DNA from: an uncultured bacterium | GTDB taxonomy: Bacteria; DUMJ01 | Reading direction: 5' to 3' | Assembly (NCBI GenBank): GCA_937958695.1 | Contig: CALGNK010000018.1 | Location: 1 to 40,429 of the forward strand | Length of the DNA: 40,429 bases | Shown: in pieces, positions 12,193 through 33,956 of the stretch | Layout of the letters: each line of letters opens with the position of its first letter | How positions within the stretch are numbered: the stretch's first letter is position 1 | Notes under the pieces: model-generated | Databases searched by the model: none | What the model was told of the DNA's origin: nothing | What the model saw: the letters and a program-made list of their open reading frames with translations, nothing else | Program-made: the position numbers and the translations under genes

Positions 12193-13089
12193 CTACAGAG
12201 TAATTTTATTTTTACCTTTAGATTTACTCACGTACATTAAGCTATCTGCTCTTTCTAAGGCTCTTTCTAGATCTTCCCCTTCAGATACAACGCCACCAAT
12301 CGAAACAGATACTTTTATTATCTTGTCATTATCTTCGATAAATGAATTATTTATCAATATATGTATCCTATTAGCTAAACTACTAAGTTCTTCCCTATCT
12401 GTAATCTCAGAGATAACTAAAAATTCGTCTCCGCCATACCTAGCCACTATATCACTTATTCTAAGATTACTTTTCAAAACTCCAGCTACCATTCTCAAAA
12501 CTTTATCTCCAACTTTGTGTCCATATGTATCATTGATCAGTTTAAAGTCATCTATATCTATAAATAAAACCCCAAATATCTTTTTAAACCTTTCAGACTC
12601 CATTTTTTTATGGTTTAAGAAATATTCAAAGCCTCTCCTGTTTAATACCCCTGTTAATTCATCAACAAAAGCCAGACTCCTTAAAGATTCTAATTCCTCT
12701 TTTAGAGTCCTTGAGTCTGTCAAATCAGTAAATAACTCGATGGCTCCAACAGGAGTGTCATTTTCATTAGTTATAGGGATTACCTTAACAAACACCGGAA
12801 CCCTATGTCCATCTCTATGATGAAGGAAGACCCTTGCTTCAACCGGCTTATTATCCTTTATTGCATAAACTACAGGACATTCCCTCTTACATAGTTCGAC
12901 CCCATTCTCATTAATATGTCTCAGTATATTATCGTAGCAGTGAGACCCAGTCACCTCATTCCTTGAATACCCAGTTATATTCTCGGCAGATTTATTCCAA
13001 TATAAAATCTTCCTTTCTGGGTCTACAATATATAATCCGTCAGATATTTTCTCGGCAACAGATTGTAATAAATCATTAATTGTCATCAT
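12193..13089 (-). CDS. PAS-GGDEF diguanylate cyclase
   Basis: This 298-residue soluble protein has an N-terminal PAS domain (about 5-125, including CYDNILRHIN and the C67/C71 pair of the LCKRECP motif) and a GGDEF domain (about 135-298). The active-site loop is intact (GGDEF at 219-223), and an RxxD inhibitory site (RISD, 210-213) lies five residues before it. It should therefore make cyclic di-GMP and be product-inhibited. No membrane segment is present, so the PAS domain probably senses a cytoplasmic cue. The start ATGATG lies 15 bases after the nfo stop and has no clear ribosome site. The opposing HD-GYP enzyme is at 26508-28583. Confidence 0.9.
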   Translation of the reverse strand: MMTINDLLQSVAEKISDGLYIVDPERKILYWNKSAENITGYSRNEVTGSHCYDNILRHINENGVELCKRECPVVYAIKDNKPVEARVFLHHRDGHRVPVFVKVIPITNENDTPVGAIELFTDLTDSRTLKEELESLRSLAFVDELTGVLNRRGFEYFLNHKKMESERFKKIFGVLFIDIDDFKLINDTYGHKVGDKVLRMVAGVLKSNLRISDIVARYGGDEFLVISEITDREELSSLANRIHILINNSFIEDNDKIIKVSVSIGGVVSEGEDLERALERADSLMYVSKSKGKNKITL

Positions 13090-26507: not shown

Positions 26508-28583
26508 TTATAACATTAGTTCCTCTTGTATGATTGATATCATCACTTCTACCAGATTTGGGTCAAACTGAGACCCACCGCATCTTCTAATCTCTTCAAC
26601 AGCTTCTGATAAGGTTAAAGCCCTTCTATATGGTCTTTCTGTGGTCATAGCATCAAATGCATCTGCTATCGACAATATCCTAGAGCCTAAAGGAATATCC
26701 TCCCCAGCCAGTCCATCCGGATATCCCTTACCATCCCATCTTTCATGATGGTGTCTGACAATCTTTGCCTCTTCCTCCAATCCTTCCATCTGAAGAATAA
26801 GCTCTTCACTCTTAACAGGGTGTATCTTAACAATCTCATATTCTTCTCCATTTAAAAATCCATTCTTATTTAATACAGCTTGAGGGACAAATATCTTTCC
26901 TATATCATGAATATAACCAGCCCAATATATCTTTCTAGAGGTTTCTACATCAAGCCTTAATCTTTCCGCTATTCTTAAAGAGTATCTTGCAACACGTTCA
27001 GAATGTCCTCTAGTATATACATCGTAGTAATCTAAAGCCCTAGTAAGAACCATAACTAGAGTATTAAGAAACATCTTTTCTCTTCTAGCATAATTTCTAA
27101 TAGCATAAAAAGATGAGACAAAACTAGATAATCTCTTAGCCATATTTATATCCATATCTGTAAAATGAATATCGTTCTCTACAATATCTAAAGAGATATA
27201 ACCAAATTTCTTATCTTCCCACATTAAAGGAGATATAATAGTCTCCTTAACGGAACCAGTAAAAGTCTCCATAACTTTATACTTCTCTTCAGGCATAATA
27301 TGCCTATTTATACTTAGGATATTTTTTACAACCGTCACTTCGTCTATATCAAGAAGTTCTCCACGGTCAAAAACAAGTCCTTCCAATTCTTTAGAGTGCC
27401 CTTCTGTCTTTATTAATGAAATGCTTCCATCTTCTCCTATTAAAAATACACTTCCTGCTTTAGCTTTAGGAATTGTATCTAAGGCTAACTTCAGAACATC
27501 TTCTAAGAAATCTTCTTCCAATATATTTAGGCTTGCCAACTTTGATACCGCCTCAAAAGTTTCTAATGTTACATTTGTAGCCCTTTCTAGCTCCTTATAG
27601 AGCTCCTCTAGCTCTTCATTGGAAGCCTTAAGTTCTTCGTAAGTAGCTTCAAGTTCCTCATTAGAAACCCTCAATTCTTCGTACAGTGCAGTCAACTCTT
27701 CATTCTTATCTCTCAATTCTTTTGTTGCCTGAACTATCCTTTTAGAAAGGAATCTATTAATCCCTATTAAGATTAGCATTAAAAGAAGTAACGCTAATAA
27801 TGTGTAGGACAAAGGTTTTATCCAACGTGGCTGTCTTTCCACCTTTACAGTATATCTATCTACTAATTCCAATAACTCGTCTTTAGAAATCTTAGAGAGG
27901 CCATCCCTTAGTATATTAAGGACTTTGGAATTTCCCTTTTGGGTAGCTATATACAGATAATTAAAAGCAATTGGTTCTGTCTTTGAAAACTCGTATAACA
28001 AATCATACTTAACAAGATAATAATTGGCTGGTAAATCGTCCATCAAAAATACTTTTATTTCTCCGTTCTTAGCTGATCGAACAATATCGGAGTAATTCTT
28101 ATAGAGTTTAAACTTAATAGAAGGATTCTCAGCCCTAGCTATATCTATTAGGGCATCTGCATCTTTTACACCTACTATATATGGAGTTAGGTCTTTTAGA
28201 GACTTAATATTACCAATCTGAGGGTCATAATAGATGCTTGAGGTCATCTCAAATATTGGAGTAGTAAAGTCTAAGAATTCTTCTCTTGCTTGAGTCTTAA
28301 AGAGCGTATCTATCACATCAGCTGAATGCTCTCTAATTATCTTAAAAGCCTCTGCCCATTCAACTGGCATTAGCTGAATATCTATTCCTGTTTTTCCCTT
28401 AAATAATCTCCAAAATTCTACAGATATGCCAACAAGATTTCCATCCTTATCTATGTAGGTAAAAGGAGGATAATCTTTATCTAACACCACTCTTAGAGTT
28501 TTAGATAATAGAGAGGAGGGAAGAAGAATCATAAAAACAGTTATTGCTAATATTAATGTTTTCTTTATTAACTTTGTAATCAA
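26508..28583 (-). CDS. Membrane sensor HD-GYP cyclic-di-GMP phosphodiesterase
   Basis: The 691-residue protein has a signal/anchor segment, a periplasmic SBP_bac_3 domain (about 28-250, starting TLRVVLDKDYPPFTYIDKDG), a transmembrane helix (about 255-275), a coiled coil with repeated YEELRVSNEELEATYEELKA-type heptads (about 285-345), a GAF-like domain (about 350-500) and an HD-GYP domain (about 505-690). The catalytic HD is at 559-560 and GYP at 620-622, in a complete HHERWDGKGYPDGL motif. It should degrade cyclic di-GMP in response to a periplasmic small molecule, perhaps an amino acid. The annotated TTG start is only two bases after GGGAGG; an ATT codon one position later has better spacing, so the exact start is uncertain. 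Confidence 0.9.
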   Translation of the reverse strand: MITKLIKKTLILAITVFMILLPSSLLSKTLRVVLDKDYPPFTYIDKDGNLVGISVEFWRLFKGKTGIDIQLMPVEWAEAFKIIREHSADVIDTLFKTQAREEFLDFTTPIFEMTSSIYYDPQIGNIKSLKDLTPYIVGVKDADALIDIARAENPSIKFKLYKNYSDIVRSAKNGEIKVFLMDDLPANYYLVKYDLLYEFSKTEPIAFNYLYIATQKGNSKVLNILRDGLSKISKDELLELVDRYTVKVERQPRWIKPLSYTLLALLLLMLILIGINRFLSKRIVQATKELRDKNEELTALYEELRVSNEELEATYEELKASNEELEELYKELERATNVTLETFEAVSKLASLNILEEDFLEDVLKLALDTIPKAKAGSVFLIGEDGSISLIKTEGHSKELEGLVFDRGELLDIDEVTVVKNILSINRHIMPEEKYKVMETFTGSVKETIISPLMWEDKKFGYISLDIVENDIHFTDMDINMAKRLSSFVSSFYAIRNYARREKMFLNTLVMVLTRALDYYDVYTRGHSERVARYSLRIAERLRLDVETSRKIYWAGYIHDIGKIFVPQAVLNKNGFLNGEEYEIVKIHPVKSEELILQMEGLEEEAKIVRHHHERWDGKGYPDGLAGEDIPLGSRILSIADAFDAMTTERPYRRALTLSEAVEEIRRCGGSQFDPNLVEVMISIIQEELML

Positions 28584-28610
28584 AGCCTCCCATTTTATTG
28601 TAATGTTAAT

Positions 28611-28650
28611 GTATAATTTTATAATTATACCAATAAATCTAAAAAGTCAA
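28611..28650 (-). promoter_or_regulatory. Extended -10 promoter with palindrome for the HD-GYP gene
   Basis: On the minus strand TGGTATAAT is an extended -10 (TATAAT 28624-28629), with TTGACT at 28645-28650 only 15 bases away. The -10 overlaps a palindrome with arms GTATAATT/AATTATAC around four bases (28611-28630), which may be an operator or chance AT-rich symmetry. Confidence 0.5.
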
Positions 28651-28661
28651 TACAAAGAAAG

Positions 28662-28730
28662 GGTTACTGGGGATGGGACTTAATGAGGCTTAATGCCTAT
28701 CATCCAGAACAATTCTTCTTCAAGAAGTAA
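28662..28730 (+). pseudogene. C-terminal fossil of a family 5 solute-binding protein gene
   Basis: On the plus strand, the frame ending with TAA at 28728-28730 reads GYWGWDLMRL and then NAYHPEQFFFKK. This is the usual end of a DppA/oligosaccharide-type binding protein (compare NPCQYFFKK at the end of the intact gene at 31660). Upstream of about 28660 the frame no longer looks like that family and there is no room for the rest of the gene. It lies upstream of the HD-GYP gene, on the opposite strand, and overlaps nothing. A terminator-like hairpin follows at once. I read it as what remains after a deletion or rearrangement. Confidence 0.65.
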
Positions 28731-28735
28731 AACGA

Positions 28736-28761
28736 TAGGCGGTGCATCTATGCACCGCCTA
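28736..28761. terminator. Strong hairpin terminator
   Basis: Perfect 11-bp arms TAGGCGGTGCA and TGCACCGCCTA enclose TCTA. On the minus strand it follows the small secreted protein gene and is followed by TCGTTTTAC. On the plus strand it lies six bases after the fossil stop codon and is followed by CACATTTTA. It may have served the lost plus-strand gene and now ends the minus-strand transcript. Confidence 0.75.
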
Positions 28762-28767
28762 CACATT

Positions 28768-29166
28768 TTAAGTTATTAGTCCTAAAGTTATTGATACTTC
28801 TATAGAGGCATCGGTAGGATTATATATAACAGTACGATATGTTCCATCAGAATAGATCGTGTATATCTCGTCTAATTTTCTAATCCCTTCAGCTAGGATA
28901 TAATGATAATAATAAGTTTGATAGGTAGCCCATTCATTATAATTTGTTTCATCAAAAAGATAAAAGTTTATTCCAGAATTTGCATTTATATATATTCTTA
29001 GTCTATTTCCATTCTTACAGTTTATAGGATAAGCTCTATGACTTCCCGAGCTGAGATTAACTACTTCGTTTACCAATATGGTTTCATTAATACAGGTATA
29101 TCCATTAGCTCCTAATAGGAATATAAGTGCCCCTAGAAGAAGCATCACCTGTAGCCTATATCTCAT
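28768..29166 (-). CDS. Small secreted protein of unknown function
   Basis: I do not recognise this 132-residue protein with certainty. It has a clear signal peptide (MRYRLQVMLLLGALIFLLGANG) and a mature part of about 110 residues that is mostly beta-strand, with many Tyr, Asn and Ser and two cysteines (about 25 and 50). The end (GTYRTVIYNPTDASIEVSIT) resembles the last strands of small beta-sandwich domains such as PPC-type domains. GGGGGAGG lies directly before the ATG, a very strong ribosome site. It stands alone, between a terminator and the long leader of the next plus-strand gene. Confidence 0.7.
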   Translation of the reverse strand: MRYRLQVMLLLGALIFLLGANGYTCINETILVNEVVNLSSGSHRAYPINCKNGNRLRIYINANSGINFYLFDETNYNEWATYQTYYYHYILAEGIRKLDEIYTIYSDGTYRTVIYNPTDASIEVSITLGLIT

Positions 29167-29698
29167 TTCCTCCCCCTCCTAACATTAAGGTAAATTTTTC
29201 GAAAACTCTAAAACCTCTTTTAGACTCAACTCCAAGGATTATATTATTTCATTTTACCACTTACAGTCCAATCATCTTGCTATTAATACTTTGCCCCCTC
29301 ATCCTAGTATTAAAAACCAGGACAAGGAGGCGATAATTATGCTAAAATCACAATATTTATTATACCAAAAATTTCATTAATTTGCTGAGATAATTTCGGA
29401 CATCTTATACACAAAATTACCATCATTACCTTGTCAGTTCACATTCCTCTTGCTTTAAGTCAATCTGAAAGGTATAATTTTACTGAAGGAAAGTGAGAAT
29501 TGAGTTAAGAAGAGAAACTTTACAAAGATAGAATCAATTATTGTTAAGTCGCAGAGCACTTTGAGAACGCAATTTATCAAGGAGGTGAGAGATAGAGATA
29601 TTGTAAGTTTATTAATTTTCAACTAATAATACACAATCAAGCTAATCCTTATGGATAGAAGTTTATACTTAAAAATTATTAAGAGGAGGAGGTTGAAT
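29167..29698. other. Long intergenic region and 5' leader of the binding-protein gene
   Basis: It holds the upstream region of the small secreted protein gene (a TATAAT on the minus strand at 29238-29243 is a possible -10), then the promoter of the family 5 binding-protein gene at 29450-29478. Two plus-strand ribosome-site sequences lead nowhere: AAGGAGG before a 13-codon frame (29339-29380), and AAGGAGGTGA at 29579-29588 without a usable downstream start. No gene is convincing here. Confidence 0.5.
29450..29478 (+). promoter_or_regulatory. Promoter of the family 5 binding-protein gene
   Basis: TTGCTT (29450-29455) and a perfect TATAAT (29473-29478) are 17 bases apart. Transcription from here would give a leader of about 210 nt before the ATG at 29699. 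Confidence 0.55.
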
Positions 29699-31660
29699 AT
29701 GAAGGGTTTACTAGCAATTATTTTATGTATAAGTTTAGTTTTTGGAATCTTAACAATTTCTTATGCGCAGAAATATCCGTCTCCATCGCAGTATAGCACA
29801 ATAGCAGATTACAAAAAGGCTACTGGAAAAGATATAAAATCCTTTAGTGAGGCTCCAATGTTAGCAGAACTGGTAAAACAGGGAAAGCTTCCACCAGTAG
29901 ATAAGAGACTTCCTGCTGAACCATTGGTGGTAGTCCCTGTAGAAGAGGTTGGACAGTATGGAGGGACTTGGAGGGCTGCTCTTTTAGGTAGGGCTGACAC
30001 TGCATGGTTAACAAGAACAGTAGATTATGAAGGATTGTTAAGATGGTCTCCCGACTTTACGACCCCTATTCCAAATATAGCTAAAAGCTATAGGGTAACT
30101 GATGAAGGTAGGACATTTACACTTTCTCTTAGAAAAGGTATGAAATGGTCTGATGGCCAACCGTTTACTGCTGATGACATACTCTTTTGGTATGAAGACG
30201 TTCTAATGAATAAAGAACTTACACCTACCATACCTAAATGGCTAACTACTGACGGACAACCGGTAAAGGTAGAAAAGGTTGATGATTATACGGTAAGATT
30301 TAAATTTACCCAGCCAAATGGTCTATTTACACAGAGATTAGCTACTCCGGATGGTTTAGGGCTAATTATACCAAAACACTATATGAAGCAGTTCCATATT
30401 AAATATACTTCTAAAGAAAAACTAGATGCATTAGTAAAGGAGAAACAACTTGCTGACTGGTTCTCTCTATTCTCCAATATGAATGACAGCTGGATGAATC
30501 CAGATAGACCAGTTGTAAATGCTTGGAAAGTGGTAGTAGCTTTAGGTACAGGTCCACGTTGCGTATTTGAGAGAAATCCTTACTACTGGAAGATAGATAT
30601 TGCTGGCAATCAATTGCCATATATAGATAAAGTAAGCTATGATATAGTAGAAAGTGTTGATGTTGCGGTAATGAAGGCGTTAAATGGAGAAATAGATATG
30701 CAGGATAGACATATTGGCGCTATAGCAAATTTCCCACTATTTGCAGACAAGAAGAATCAGGAAAAGGGTAACTTTAGACTTTTCTATACGATACCAACCG
30801 GTATGAATACAATGGTAATAGCATTTAACCTTAATCATAAGGACCCAGTACTTAGGAAGATTTTCAATGAAAAAAGATTCCGTTTTGCTATGTCTTCAGC
30901 TATCAATCGAAAGGAAATTATAGATCTAGTATATCTAGGGCAAGGAGAACCCAGACAGCCTTCCCCATTACCAGAGTCTCCTTTCTATCATGAACAATTA
31001 TCTAAGGCTTATATTGAGTATAATCCTACACTTGCTAATAAGTTACTCGATGAGATAGGCTTAAAGCGTGGGCCAGATGGCTATAGACTAAGACCAGATG
31101 GCAAACCATTAGCAGTTACTATAGAAGTTGCAACTATATCGCAACAGTGGATAGATGCCTGCGAACTTGTTAAAAGATATTGGGAAGCTGTAGGAGTAAA
31201 GACTGCTATAAAAACTATGGATAGATCATTATTCTATTCTAGGAAAGCAGCTGCTGAGCATGATATAGCAATATGGGGTGGAGACGGTGGAATGGAAGTC
31301 CTTCTAGAACCAAGATGGTACTTCCCATTCAGTGCTGAATCTAACCATGCTCCGTTGTGGCAACTCTGGTACAACTCTGGTGGAAAGTCTGGTGAAGAAC
31401 CACCTCCGGAAGTCAAAAAACAGATGCAGTTATACGATGAGATCACAAAGACTACAAGCTTTGCTAAGCAGAAACTTTTGATGAAGCAAATCCTTGATAT
31501 AGCTGCAAAGAATCTTTATGTAATAGGAATAAGCTCTAATCCTAGAGGATTTGGTATAGTCAAGAATAACTTTAGAAATGTTCCAGAAGAAATGTTTGGT
31601 AGCTGGTTATATCCTAACCCAGCCCCAACTAATCCTTGTCAGTATTTCTTCAAGAAGTAA
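29699..31660 (+). CDS. ABC transporter substrate-binding protein, family 5 (peptide/oligosaccharide type)
   Basis: From the ATG at 29699 (GGAGGAGG shortly upstream) the 653-residue protein begins with a signal peptide MKGLLAIILCISLVFGILT. It then shows typical family 5 segments: YRVTDEGRTFTLSLRKGMKW, SDGQPFTADDILFWYEDV and the closing QYFFKK. An in-frame ATG at 29651 would add 16 codons that include the ribosome site, so it is rejected. In hyperthermophiles such proteins bind oligopeptides or beta-linked oligosaccharides. No family 5 permease or ATPase genes follow, so partners must be elsewhere. Given the surrounding hydrolases, an oligosaccharide ligand is plausible but unproven. Confidence 0.92.
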   Translation: MKGLLAIILCISLVFGILTISYAQKYPSPSQYSTIADYKKATGKDIKSFSEAPMLAELVKQGKLPPVDKRLPAEPLVVVPVEEVGQYGGTWRAALLGRADTAWLTRTVDYEGLLRWSPDFTTPIPNIAKSYRVTDEGRTFTLSLRKGMKWSDGQPFTADDILFWYEDVLMNKELTPTIPKWLTTDGQPVKVEKVDDYTVRFKFTQPNGLFTQRLATPDGLGLIIPKHYMKQFHIKYTSKEKLDALVKEKQLADWFSLFSNMNDSWMNPDRPVVNAWKVVVALGTGPRCVFERNPYYWKIDIAGNQLPYIDKVSYDIVESVDVAVMKALNGEIDMQDRHIGAIANFPLFADKKNQEKGNFRLFYTIPTGMNTMVIAFNLNHKDPVLRKIFNEKRFRFAMSSAINRKEIIDLVYLGQGEPRQPSPLPESPFYHEQLSKAYIEYNPTLANKLLDEIGLKRGPDGYRLRPDGKPLAVTIEVATISQQWIDACELVKRYWEAVGVKTAIKTMDRSLFYSRKAAAEHDIAIWGGDGGMEVLLEPRWYFPFSAESNHAPLWQLWYNSGGKSGEEPPPEVKKQMQLYDEITKTTSFAKQKLLMKQILDIAAKNLYVIGISSNPRGFGIVKNNFRNVPEEMFGSWLYPNPAPTNPCQYFFKK

Positions 31661-31689
31661 GTAGATACATATTAGTAGAAGAATCTTAG

Positions 31690-31716
31690 TAGGAGGGGGG
31701 TAATTACCCCCTCCTA
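31690..31716. terminator. Terminator after the family 5 binding-protein gene
   Basis: TAGGAGGGGG pairs with CCCCCTCCTA around a small self-complementary centre, 29 bases after the stop. The tail is TCATTATGAATTT, a modest U-content. Confidence 0.7.
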
Positions 31717-31821
31717 TCATTATGAATTTCCCATCCCTAAAAACAGAACGTTACCTCTAGGAAATTTTAAAGGCTTTATAGATATTCTAAAACTCACATA
31801 CCAATTTTCAGCAAAAACATC

Positions 31822-31830
31822 TGATATAAT
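31822..31830 (+). promoter_or_regulatory. Extended -10 promoter for nrdD-dcd-nrdG
   Basis: TGATATAAT fits an extended -10 (TGn before TATAAT), 32 bases before the nrdD ATG. No good -35 is visible, which is usual for extended -10 promoters. Confidence 0.55.
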
Positions 31831-31862
31831 AATTTATATAATTTTCAAAGTGGAGGATTGCT

Positions 31863-33956
31863 ATGTTTAAGGAGATTAGGAAGCGAGACGGAAGAATAGT
31901 TAAGTTTGATGCTAGTAAAATAACAAATGCTATTGCTAAGGCAGGTATGGCAACTGGAGAATTTGGAAGAGATATAGCTGAGAGATTAACTTTAAAGGTT
32001 TTGAGCCTAGCAGAAGAGGTAATAAAGAATGAGATCCCTACAGTAGAAGAGATACAGGATGTTGTAGAAGAAGTCCTTATAGGCTCACCTTATAAAAAGA
32101 CTGCCAAAGCCTATATACTCTACAGAGATCAACATACAAAGATTAGGGAGATATCTGCCAAGGCCAATGTAGACCTTGTTGACCAGTATCTAGAAAAGAT
32201 AGACTGGCAGGTTCAAGAAAACAGTAATATGACGTTTTCCCTTCAGGGCTTAAATAACTATATAGCCTCAGAGATAAGTAAAGTATACTGGTTAAACAAG
32301 ATATACCCGCCTGAGATTAGGAATGCACATATAAATGGAGATTTTCATATTCACGACCTTAACAGTCTTTCTGTTTATTGCGTTGGTTGGGATTTGCAGG
32401 ATTTACTTATAGAAGGTTTTAGGGGGGTCCCAGGTAAGGCTGAGAGTAAGCCCGCAAAACATTTCAGAAGTGCGTTGGGACAAATAGTTAACTTCTTCTA
32501 CACCCTTCAAGGAGAGGCTGCCGGAGCTCAAGCATTTTCTAACTTTGATACATTACTAGCACCATTTATAAGATTTGACAATCTAAGCTACAGAGATGTA
32601 AAACAAGCTCTTCAGGAATTTATATTCAATACAAATGTCTCTACTAGAACGGGGTTCCAAACACCCTTTACTAATGTAACACTAGACTTGACTGTTCCTC
32701 AGTTTATGAAGGATCAACCTGTAATTATTGGTGGAAAACCTCAGTCTGCTACGTATGGAGAATTCCAAGAGGAACTAGACATCTTTAACAAAGCCTTCTT
32801 AGAGGTTATGCTAGAAGGGGACGCCAAGGGAAGAGTATTTACATTTCCTATACCAACATATAGTATTACAAAAGACTTTGATTGGGACAACCCCAATATC
32901 GAGCTTCTCTGGGAAGTTACTGCAAAGTATGGTATTCCTTACTTCTCTAACTTTATAAACTCTGATATGAAACCTGAAGATGTTAGAAGTATGTGCTGTA
33001 GGTTAAGGCTTAATAATCGTGAACTGCAGAAACGAGGTGGAGGGCTTTTTGGGGCAAATCCACTTACTGGTTCAATAGGTGTAGTTACTATAAACATGCC
33101 AAGGCTTGGATATTTATCAAAAGATGAAGATGAATTCTTTGAAAGACTCGAGAAGCTTATGATTCTTGCCAAAGAGAGCCTAGAAATTAAGAGGAAGGTC
33201 TTAGAAAGATTTACAGAAAGAGACCTATATCCCTATTCAAAGTTCTACCTTAGAGAAGTAAAGAAGAGATTTGGAGAATATTGGAAGAATCATTTTTCGA
33301 CAATAGGACTTATAGGAATGAACGAGGCATGTCTGAATCTTCTAGGTGTAGATATTGGAACAGAAGAGGGGAAAGACTTTACTATAAAGGTTCTCTCTTT
33401 TATGAGAGAAAAATTAATAGAGTTCCAGGAGGAGACTGGTAATATATATAACCTAGAGGCTACACCAGGCGAAGGGACATCATACAGATTGGCTAGGATA
33501 GACAAAGATAAATATCCAGAAATTATATGTGCAAATGAAAGAGAATTTAGGCAAGTTTCGGCTGAACCTTTCTATACAAATTCGACACAGCTACCTGTAA
33601 ATTATACTGATGATATCTTTTATGCCCTTGATCTGCAAGATGATATACAGACTATGTACACAGGAGGAACAGTATTTCACATATTTGTTGGAGAAAGGAT
33701 ACAAGACCACAGTAGTGTAAGGAATCTAGTAAAGAAGGTCTGTGAAAACTATAAACTTCCTTACATAACAATAACTCCAACTTTCAGTGTGTGTCCAAGC
33801 CATGGGTATATTGCTGGAGAATTTGACATATGCCCAAAATGTGGCGAGACAACAGAGATCTATTCACGTGTAGTTGGATACTTAAGACCTGTAAACCAGT
33901 GGAACAAAGGCAAGCAGGAGGAATTTAAACTAAGAAGAACGTTTAATGTTAAATAG
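31863..33956 (+). CDS. nrdD: Anaerobic ribonucleoside-triphosphate reductase (class III)
   Basis: The 697-residue enzyme has an N-terminal ATP-cone (IRKRDGRIVKFDASKITNAI, about 4-95), the long barrel with IYPPEIRNAHINGDFHIHDL, a C-terminal zinc site (CPSHG and CPKCGE), and the glycyl-radical segment RVVGYLRP with the radical Gly near residue 672. It makes deoxyribonucleotides under anoxic conditions. The tail continues VNQWNKGKQEEF, as in NrdD subtypes. GGAGG lies eight bases before the ATG. The activating enzyme is encoded two genes downstream, and a dCTP deaminase lies between them, which makes a compact deoxynucleotide operon. Confidence 0.97.
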   Translation: MFKEIRKRDGRIVKFDASKITNAIAKAGMATGEFGRDIAERLTLKVLSLAEEVIKNEIPTVEEIQDVVEEVLIGSPYKKTAKAYILYRDQHTKIREISAKANVDLVDQYLEKIDWQVQENSNMTFSLQGLNNYIASEISKVYWLNKIYPPEIRNAHINGDFHIHDLNSLSVYCVGWDLQDLLIEGFRGVPGKAESKPAKHFRSALGQIVNFFYTLQGEAAGAQAFSNFDTLLAPFIRFDNLSYRDVKQALQEFIFNTNVSTRTGFQTPFTNVTLDLTVPQFMKDQPVIIGGKPQSATYGEFQEELDIFNKAFLEVMLEGDAKGRVFTFPIPTYSITKDFDWDNPNIELLWEVTAKYGIPYFSNFINSDMKPEDVRSMCCRLRLNNRELQKRGGGLFGANPLTGSIGVVTINMPRLGYLSKDEDEFFERLEKLMILAKESLEIKRKVLERFTERDLYPYSKFYLREVKKRFGEYWKNHFSTIGLIGMNEACLNLLGVDIGTEEGKDFTIKVLSFMREKLIEFQEETGNIYNLEATPGEGTSYRLARIDKDKYPEIICANEREFRQVSAEPFYTNSTQLPVNYTDDIFYALDLQDDIQTMYTGGTVFHIFVGERIQDHSSVRNLVKKVCENYKLPYITITPTFSVCPSHGYIAGEFDICPKCGETTEIYSRVVGYLRPVNQWNKGKQEEFKLRRTFNVK

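What the first reader, a model, noticed from the sequence alone, without database searches (positions are those of the whole stretch)
28662..28761. Fossil C-terminus of a binding-protein gene with its terminator
The plus-strand tail NAYHPEQFFFKK plus stop is followed at once by a strong hairpin. It matches the way family 5 binding proteins end (the intact one nearby ends NPCQYFFKK, also with the DNA TTCTTCAAGAAGTAA). The rest of the gene is gone and an HD-GYP promoter now sits where its body would be. This marks a past deletion or rearrangement joint.
Basis: partly seen in the sequence, partly recalled or inferred. Interest (0 to 1): 0.5.

Follow-up and report, generated by a model that had tools for sequence, protein, structure and literature searches.

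The report
Gene-end relic at an insertion edge
A short stretch next to a signalling gene is the leftover last 24 codons of a lost nutrient-binding-protein gene, and it marks the left edge of about 3 kb of extra DNA that the two related genomes examined lack at this spot; it is ordinary genome decay, in a genus crowded with such genes.

Summary
Window 28656-28727 encodes 24 codons (RKGYWGWDLMRLNAYHPEQFFFKK, then stop) that match the C-termini of family 5 substrate-binding proteins (SBP5): E 2.9e-7 in the own genome, E 1.3e-8 with a profile of 37 C-termini. A strong hairpin follows.

It is a rearrangement joint. However, the HD-GYP promoter did not move in: it is conserved in both congeners held. 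In G002 the HD-GYP gene directly neighbours nrdD; in G001 one SDR gene lies between. The window carries about 3.15 kb there: SBP5 tail, hairpin, a small - strand ORF, a relic of an IS1182-like element and a complete SBP5. Homology to the relatives' HD-GYP side stops at 28650-28651; SBP homology starts at 28659. The tail is the truncated left edge of added DNA. Whether it arrived truncated or was trimmed later cannot be settled.

Side result: the IS relic belongs to a family whose left end lies 8-16 nt from a G-rich, mostly Shine-Dalgarno, core in 16 of 16 copies examined; 2.7% of window positions pass the same test. That deserves its own study.

The parts
28583..28651 (-). Resident 5' region and likely promoter of the HD-GYP gene (TTGACT at 28650-28645, TATAAT at 28629-28624, spacing 15, shorter than usual), conserved in G001 and G002; homology stops at 28650-28651
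   Evidence: motifs read directly from the sequence; the consensus scan, which allows spacings of 16-18 only, lists the same TTGACT with AATTAT
28651..28659 (.). Left joint: end of resident sequence, start of SBP homology (K codon at 28659)
   Evidence: three-genome alignment and profile alignment starting at K
28656..28730 (+). SBP5 C-terminal relic, 24 codons plus stop
28735..28762 (.). Hairpin, terminator-like on the - strand (followed by CGTTTTACTT)
28768..29166 (-). Small ORF, 132 aa, hydrophobic N-terminus (signal-peptide-like by eye, not tested), strong Shine-Dalgarno; no Pfam or NCBIfam family
   Evidence: partial DNA matches in G002:C52
29191..29386 (+). Relic of the left end of an IS1182-like element, including the first codons of its transposase
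29651..31660 (+). Complete SBP5 gene (Pfam SBP_bac_5; likely start at 29699, by eye); not the sibling of the tail
31690..31716 (.). Hairpin after the SBP5 gene
31740..31815 (.). Approximate zone of the right joint; the resident nrdD leader resumes at about 31815-31825
31863..33956 (+). Resident anaerobic ribonucleotide reductase gene nrdD, right flank of the insertion

Best explanation
The tail is a non-functional gene relic. Roughly 3.15 kb (28651 to about 31815) sits in the short gap between the divergent HD-GYP and nrdD genes. Its left end lies inside the last 24 codons of an SBP5 gene whose body is absent, and its right end lies just before the nrdD leader. The added DNA carries tail, hairpin, small - strand ORF, IS1182-like left-end relic and a complete SBP5 gene. 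Shown: the homology, the empty arrangement in G002 with collinear flanks, the different cargo in G001, and the position of the joints to within about 8 bases (left) or tens of bases (right). Inferred: that the tail came as the cut edge of a segment copied from an SBP5-rich region, rather than by trimming of a whole inserted gene; and that the joint falls right at the HD-GYP -35 box because only insertions that spare both flanking promoters survive. Retention of the hairpin by use as terminator of the small - strand gene is a plausible inference, untested.
For: Tail homology and controls. The same places are SBP5 genes. Empty arrangement in G002 and collinearity of flanking genes (HD-GYP, nrdD, dCTP deaminase, NrdG, DHDPS and four more). 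SDR gene instead in G001. The complete SBP5 has likely orthologues elsewhere in both relatives: G001:C28 and C108 (73% and 86% identity; taken as two halves of one gene cut by the assembly, an inference), beside a glycosidase-like gene (named by eye) and a DHDPS-type gene; and G002:C384 (77%). The tail is closest to another subfamily (15 of 23 identical to G000:C3) and shares only 6 residues in a 9-residue local match with the neighbouring SBP5. IS relic. SBP5 turnover is common here: 44, 51 and 55 matches at E<=1e-5 in G000, G001, G002, fragments included, 8 of these rows with internal stops; and a C-terminal fragment in a 127-aa frame at G000:C24 directly behind a sugar-isomerase-like gene (named by eye).
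Against: Only three genomes of the genus are held, all draft assemblies, so the direction (gain here or loss in G002) rests on parsimony. The collinearity test was possible in G002 only; the G001 contig has 3744 bases. No donor locus with tail, small ORF and SBP5 together was found. No target duplication or mobile-element end was seen at the left joint. A deletion after insertion of a whole SBP5 gene predicts the same sequence.
Confidence: 0.75

Rival explanations
1. In-place decay: two SBP5 genes were present between HD-GYP and nrdD, and a deletion removed all but the last 24 codons of the first, stopping at the HD-GYP promoter because that promoter is under selection.
For: The sequence at the joint fits equally well; SBP5 matches with internal stops occur elsewhere in the genome.
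Against: Neither of 2 relatives has an SBP5 gene at this place. It needs an insertion first and a deletion afterwards, unless two relatives lost the genes.
Confidence: 0.2
2. Chance resemblance of a short reading frame to SBP5 C-termini.
For: Only 24 codons.
Against: E 2.9e-7 and 1.3e-8, at the correct distance from the stop; 0 of 500 shuffles above 12.1 bits against 30.9.
Confidence: 0.01
3. Assembly chimera: the joint was made by the assembler between SBP5 repeats.
For: Draft genome with dozens of similar SBP5 genes; some SBP5 matches of the relatives sit at contig ends.
Against: Both flanks of the insert are the same resident neighbours as in G002, in the same order and orientation, which would need two chimeric joins returning to the same place. 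The tail has no near-identical copy in the genome.
Confidence: 0.04

Closest known systems
SBP_bac_5 (Pfam PF00496) extracellular solute-binding proteins, family 5
   Same: The last 24 residues match C-termini of several own-genome members, at the correct distance from the stop
   Different: The relic lacks everything else, including the Pfam-defined middle domain; it is a remnant, not a member
Gene relics at insertion or deletion joints in bacterial genomes (general kind, from own knowledge)
   Same: Short in-frame remnant with a terminator-like hairpin at the edge of a non-collinear segment
   Different: Nothing unusual
IS1182 family insertion sequences (for the IS relic)
   Same: Transposase of an open copy (G002:C53) matches NF033551 (E 4e-18) and DDE_Tnp_1; terminal inverted repeats
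   Different: NF033551 score 65.5 is far below its cut-off of 270; left ends lie 8-16 nt from G-rich, mostly Shine-Dalgarno cores, whereas IS1272 of this family mostly replaces inverted repeats (PMC5678879, passages seen; that paper also reports three copies with non-repeat targets)

Membership tests
SBP_bac_5 gene (tail) | C-terminal sequence of the family at the correct distance from the stop | tested here: met
SBP_bac_5 gene (tail) | Family 5 middle domain and signal peptide | tested here: not met
   upstream of 28656 lies the resident HD-GYP promoter; the gene body is absent
Inserted segment | Site without it in a relative, with both flanks collinear | tested here: met
   G002:C174
Inserted segment | Target-site duplication or mobile-element ends at both joints | tested here: not met
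   none at the left joint by inspection; a 17-bp IS-end-like match with one mismatch at 31779-31795 near the right joint is unproven
IS1182 family (relic 29191-29386) | DDE transposase of the family in an open copy | tested here: inconclusive
   E 4e-18 to NF033551 but below the curated cut-off
IS1182 family (relic 29191-29386) | Terminal inverted repeats | tested here: met
   left GTAGATTTTCGGAAACTC, right GTAGGCTCTCGGAAACTC in G002:C53, 15 of 18, a short match of E 0.11; a similar right end, GTAGCCTCTCGGAAACTC, is seen in the copy

The most novel reading that the evidence does not exclude
The insert carries a relic of an IS1182-like element that inserts about 12 nt (8-16) upstream of Shine-Dalgarno sequences, with its left end towards the gene, so that it lands between a gene's promoter and its ribosome-binding site. 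Repeated use of SBP5 genes as targets (6 of 15 left ends with a readable neighbour) may help rewire and reshuffle the unusually large SBP5 set of this genus, including the segment whose edge is the fossil tail.
Probability: 0.45. Interest if true: 0.55.

Novelty: new member of a known kind. Interest (0 to 1): 0.25.

Why it matters
By itself the relic is an ordinary trace of gene turnover, useful as a marker of the joint. It shows that the HD-GYP/nrdD gap holds different cargo in different congeners and that SBP5 genes change place and decay in this genus. The IS relic in the same insert points to a possibly unusual target preference (upstream of ribosome-binding sites) that could be tested directly.

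Tried and rejected
Rejected: tandem-duplication leftover of the neighbouring SBP5 (the tail is closer to a different subfamily). Not found: a donor in the own genome at DNA level (apart from the window itself, only about the last 30 bp of the tail match other places). Not found: an RNA element in 28400-31900 (no Rfam family reaches its gathering score). Looked at and left: C-terminal SBP5 fragments in G001:C88 and G002:C353 begin 12 and 5 bases from a contig end, so they cannot be told from genes cut by the assembly. Literature on IS targets near Shine-Dalgarno sequences: three searches (55, 2 and 7 papers, of which 20, 2 and 7 were listed); only the listings (titles, starts of abstracts) were seen, and of PMC5678879 the 12 passages. 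No description of such a target was seen there, which is not proof of absence. A search on SBP5 expansion found no paper, and one for strain SKW194 found one unrelated paper. Searches reached G000, G001 and the unrelated G003, not G002; G002 was compared.

Full report
Check of the observation. The + strand reading NAYHPEQFFFKK-stop is present, and the homologous stretch is 28656-28727, RKGYWGWDLMRLNAYHPEQFFFKK. Searching the own genome with these 24 residues gives 9 places at E<=10: itself and 8 others, the best at E 2.9e-7 and 65% identity. All 8 are among the places that match the window's intact SBP5 protein, and the match ends at or within about two residues of their C-termini; 7 are in frames of 654-683 aa, one in a frame of 127 aa. 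A profile from 37 SBP5 C-termini (the window's intact SBP5 included, the relic not) finds the relic at E 1.3e-8 in the six-frame translation of the window; the next hit besides the intact gene is E 0.4. In 500 dinucleotide shuffles of 28501-29000 the best score was 12.1 bits, against 30.9. It is not chance.

The hairpin. 28735-28762 folds into a stem of 12 pairs on the - strand; -20.3 kcal/mol for the + strand segment and -26.0 for the - strand segment. The terminator scan accepts it on the - strand only, where CGTTTTACTT follows. Four bases separate it from the tail's stop and five from the stop of the small - strand ORF (28768-29166), so it can have served both.

Comparison with relatives. 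Of 40 genomes searched by DNA (28500-29166), the own one included, only the own one and the two congeners match at E<=0.001. In G002 the HD-GYP gene and nrdD are divergent neighbours; 65 bases lie between the TTGACT box and the nrdD start, against 971 in G001 and 3212 in the window. The genes behind nrdD in G002 are collinear with the window at 80-98% protein identity. In G001 a short-chain dehydrogenase gene lies between; its contig is too short for a wider comparison. The conserved HD-GYP promoter side ends at AAAAAGTCAA(T) in all three, i.e. at 28650-28651. SBP homology starts at K, codon 28659. The joint is thus placed to within about 8 bp. On the right, similarity to the relatives' nrdD leader resumes near 31815-31825.

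What the added DNA holds. In order: SBP5 tail; hairpin; small - strand ORF of 132 aa without Pfam or NCBIfam family, with partial, apparently decayed DNA matches in G002:C52 and no protein match at E<=0.01 in the 19 other genomes searched, G001 and G002 among them; a relic of the left end of an IS1182-like element (29191-29386); a complete SBP5 gene; a hairpin; then nrdD. The complete SBP5 gene has likely orthologues in both relatives, but at other loci. The tail is not its sibling: the tail is nearest to G000:C3 (15 of 23 identical), while with the neighbouring SBP5 only 6 identities in a 9-residue local match remain.

Mechanism. I take the tail as the cut left edge of inserted DNA (confidence 0.75). 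An insertion of a whole SBP5 gene followed by a deletion up to the HD-GYP promoter gives the same sequence (0.2). An assembly chimera is unlikely because the insert returns to the same resident neighbour (0.04). The place of the joint, directly outside the -35 box, is most simply explained by selection: G002 has only 65 bases between that box and the nrdD start, so few positions tolerate an insertion. This step is inference, and the promoter itself is a conserved motif pair with a spacing of 15, shorter than usual, not a mapped promoter. SBP5 turnover looks frequent here: 44, 51 and 55 matches to the intact protein at E<=1e-5 in G000, G001 and G002 (separate matches, fragments included), 8 of them with internal stops, and a C-terminal fragment in a 127-aa frame at G000:C24.

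Side result on the IS. An open copy (G002:C53) encodes a 499-aa DDE transposase, nearest to the IS1182 family but below its curated cut-off, and has end repeats 15 of 18 identical. A search for the left end gave 22 rows in three genomes; 16 (E up to 0.003; 8 in G000, 8 in G002) were examined and 6 weaker ones, among them the only row of G001, dropped. In 16 of 16 a G-rich core (GGAGG, GGGGG or AGAGG) lies within 8-20 nt outside the left end; in 13 of 16 it is GGAGG. The same tests hold at 2.7% and 0.98% of 80,810 window positions. The core starts 8-16 nt from the end, median 12, and 11 of 16 have the start of an ORF of at least 100 aa 19-29 nt from the end. The other 5 do not, so the target may be the G-rich core rather than the ribosome-binding site as such. 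The criterion was chosen after seeing the flanks, but the effect is very large. Only left ends were searched for; right-end flanks were looked at in two copies. In 6 of 15 ends with a readable neighbour the gene is an SBP5-type gene (places matched); two of the 15 ends share one gene. A binomial estimate of 5e-7 for this enrichment assumes 2000 genes and independence and is rough; selection for such insertions instead of targeting is not excluded. An empty site exists for one copy: before a rhamnose-isomerase-like gene (named by eye) G000 and G001 have an uninterrupted leader, while G002 carries an internally deleted copy between the -10-like region and the Shine-Dalgarno, with an apparent 6-bp duplication TTAAAT that the empty sites do not confirm. 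The second such test, with a fucosidase-like gene (named by eye), gave only distant homologues of 62% identity or less besides the query itself and was not used. Three literature searches did not show such a target preference described (listings only). IS1272, a member of the IS1182 family, mostly replaces inverted repeats instead (PMC5678879, passages). Nothing shows that this IS made the joint of the finding.

Verdict. Observation confirmed; interpretation partly supported. An ordinary gene relic at an insertion edge, with a more interesting IS relic nearby.

Noticed in passing
29191-29386; copies in G000 and G002 (L093-L109): Left-end relic of an IS1182-like element whose left ends lie 8-16 nt from a G-rich core in 16 of 16 copies examined (GGAGG in 13), mostly just before gene starts and often before binding-protein genes.
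   Followed up: partly
L125 (G002:C67) against L126 (G001:C13) and L127 (G000:C26): Filled and empty site of that element before a rhamnose-isomerase-like gene; the copy lies between the -10-like region and the Shine-Dalgarno, with an apparent 6-bp duplication.
   Followed up: partly
L050:2975-7159 (G002:C174); window 31863-33956: G002 nrdD holds two in-frame inserts (residues about 267-583 and 707-1074); the second matches intein splicing and LAGLIDADG domains, the first only weakly a HINT domain. The window's nrdD has neither.
   Followed up: partly
L117:2368-2751 (G000:C24): A second C-terminal SBP5 fragment, in a 127-aa frame, directly behind a sugar-isomerase-like gene (named by eye).
   Followed up: partly
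G000, G001, G002: Very large SBP5 gene set (44, 51 and 55 matches, fragments included, in genomes of about 2.1-2.4 Mb), with broken copies such as G000:C47:20229-22049 with 9 internal stops.
   Followed up: no
31779-31795: TAGATATTCTAAAACTC, one mismatch to a variant of the IS left end, close to the right joint; possibly another relic.
   Followed up: no
L014 / L054 near 12907-13067 (G002:C52): Partial, apparently decayed DNA copy of the small ORF 28768-29166 beside a beta-lactamase-like gene (product guessed by eye, not tested).
   Followed up: no
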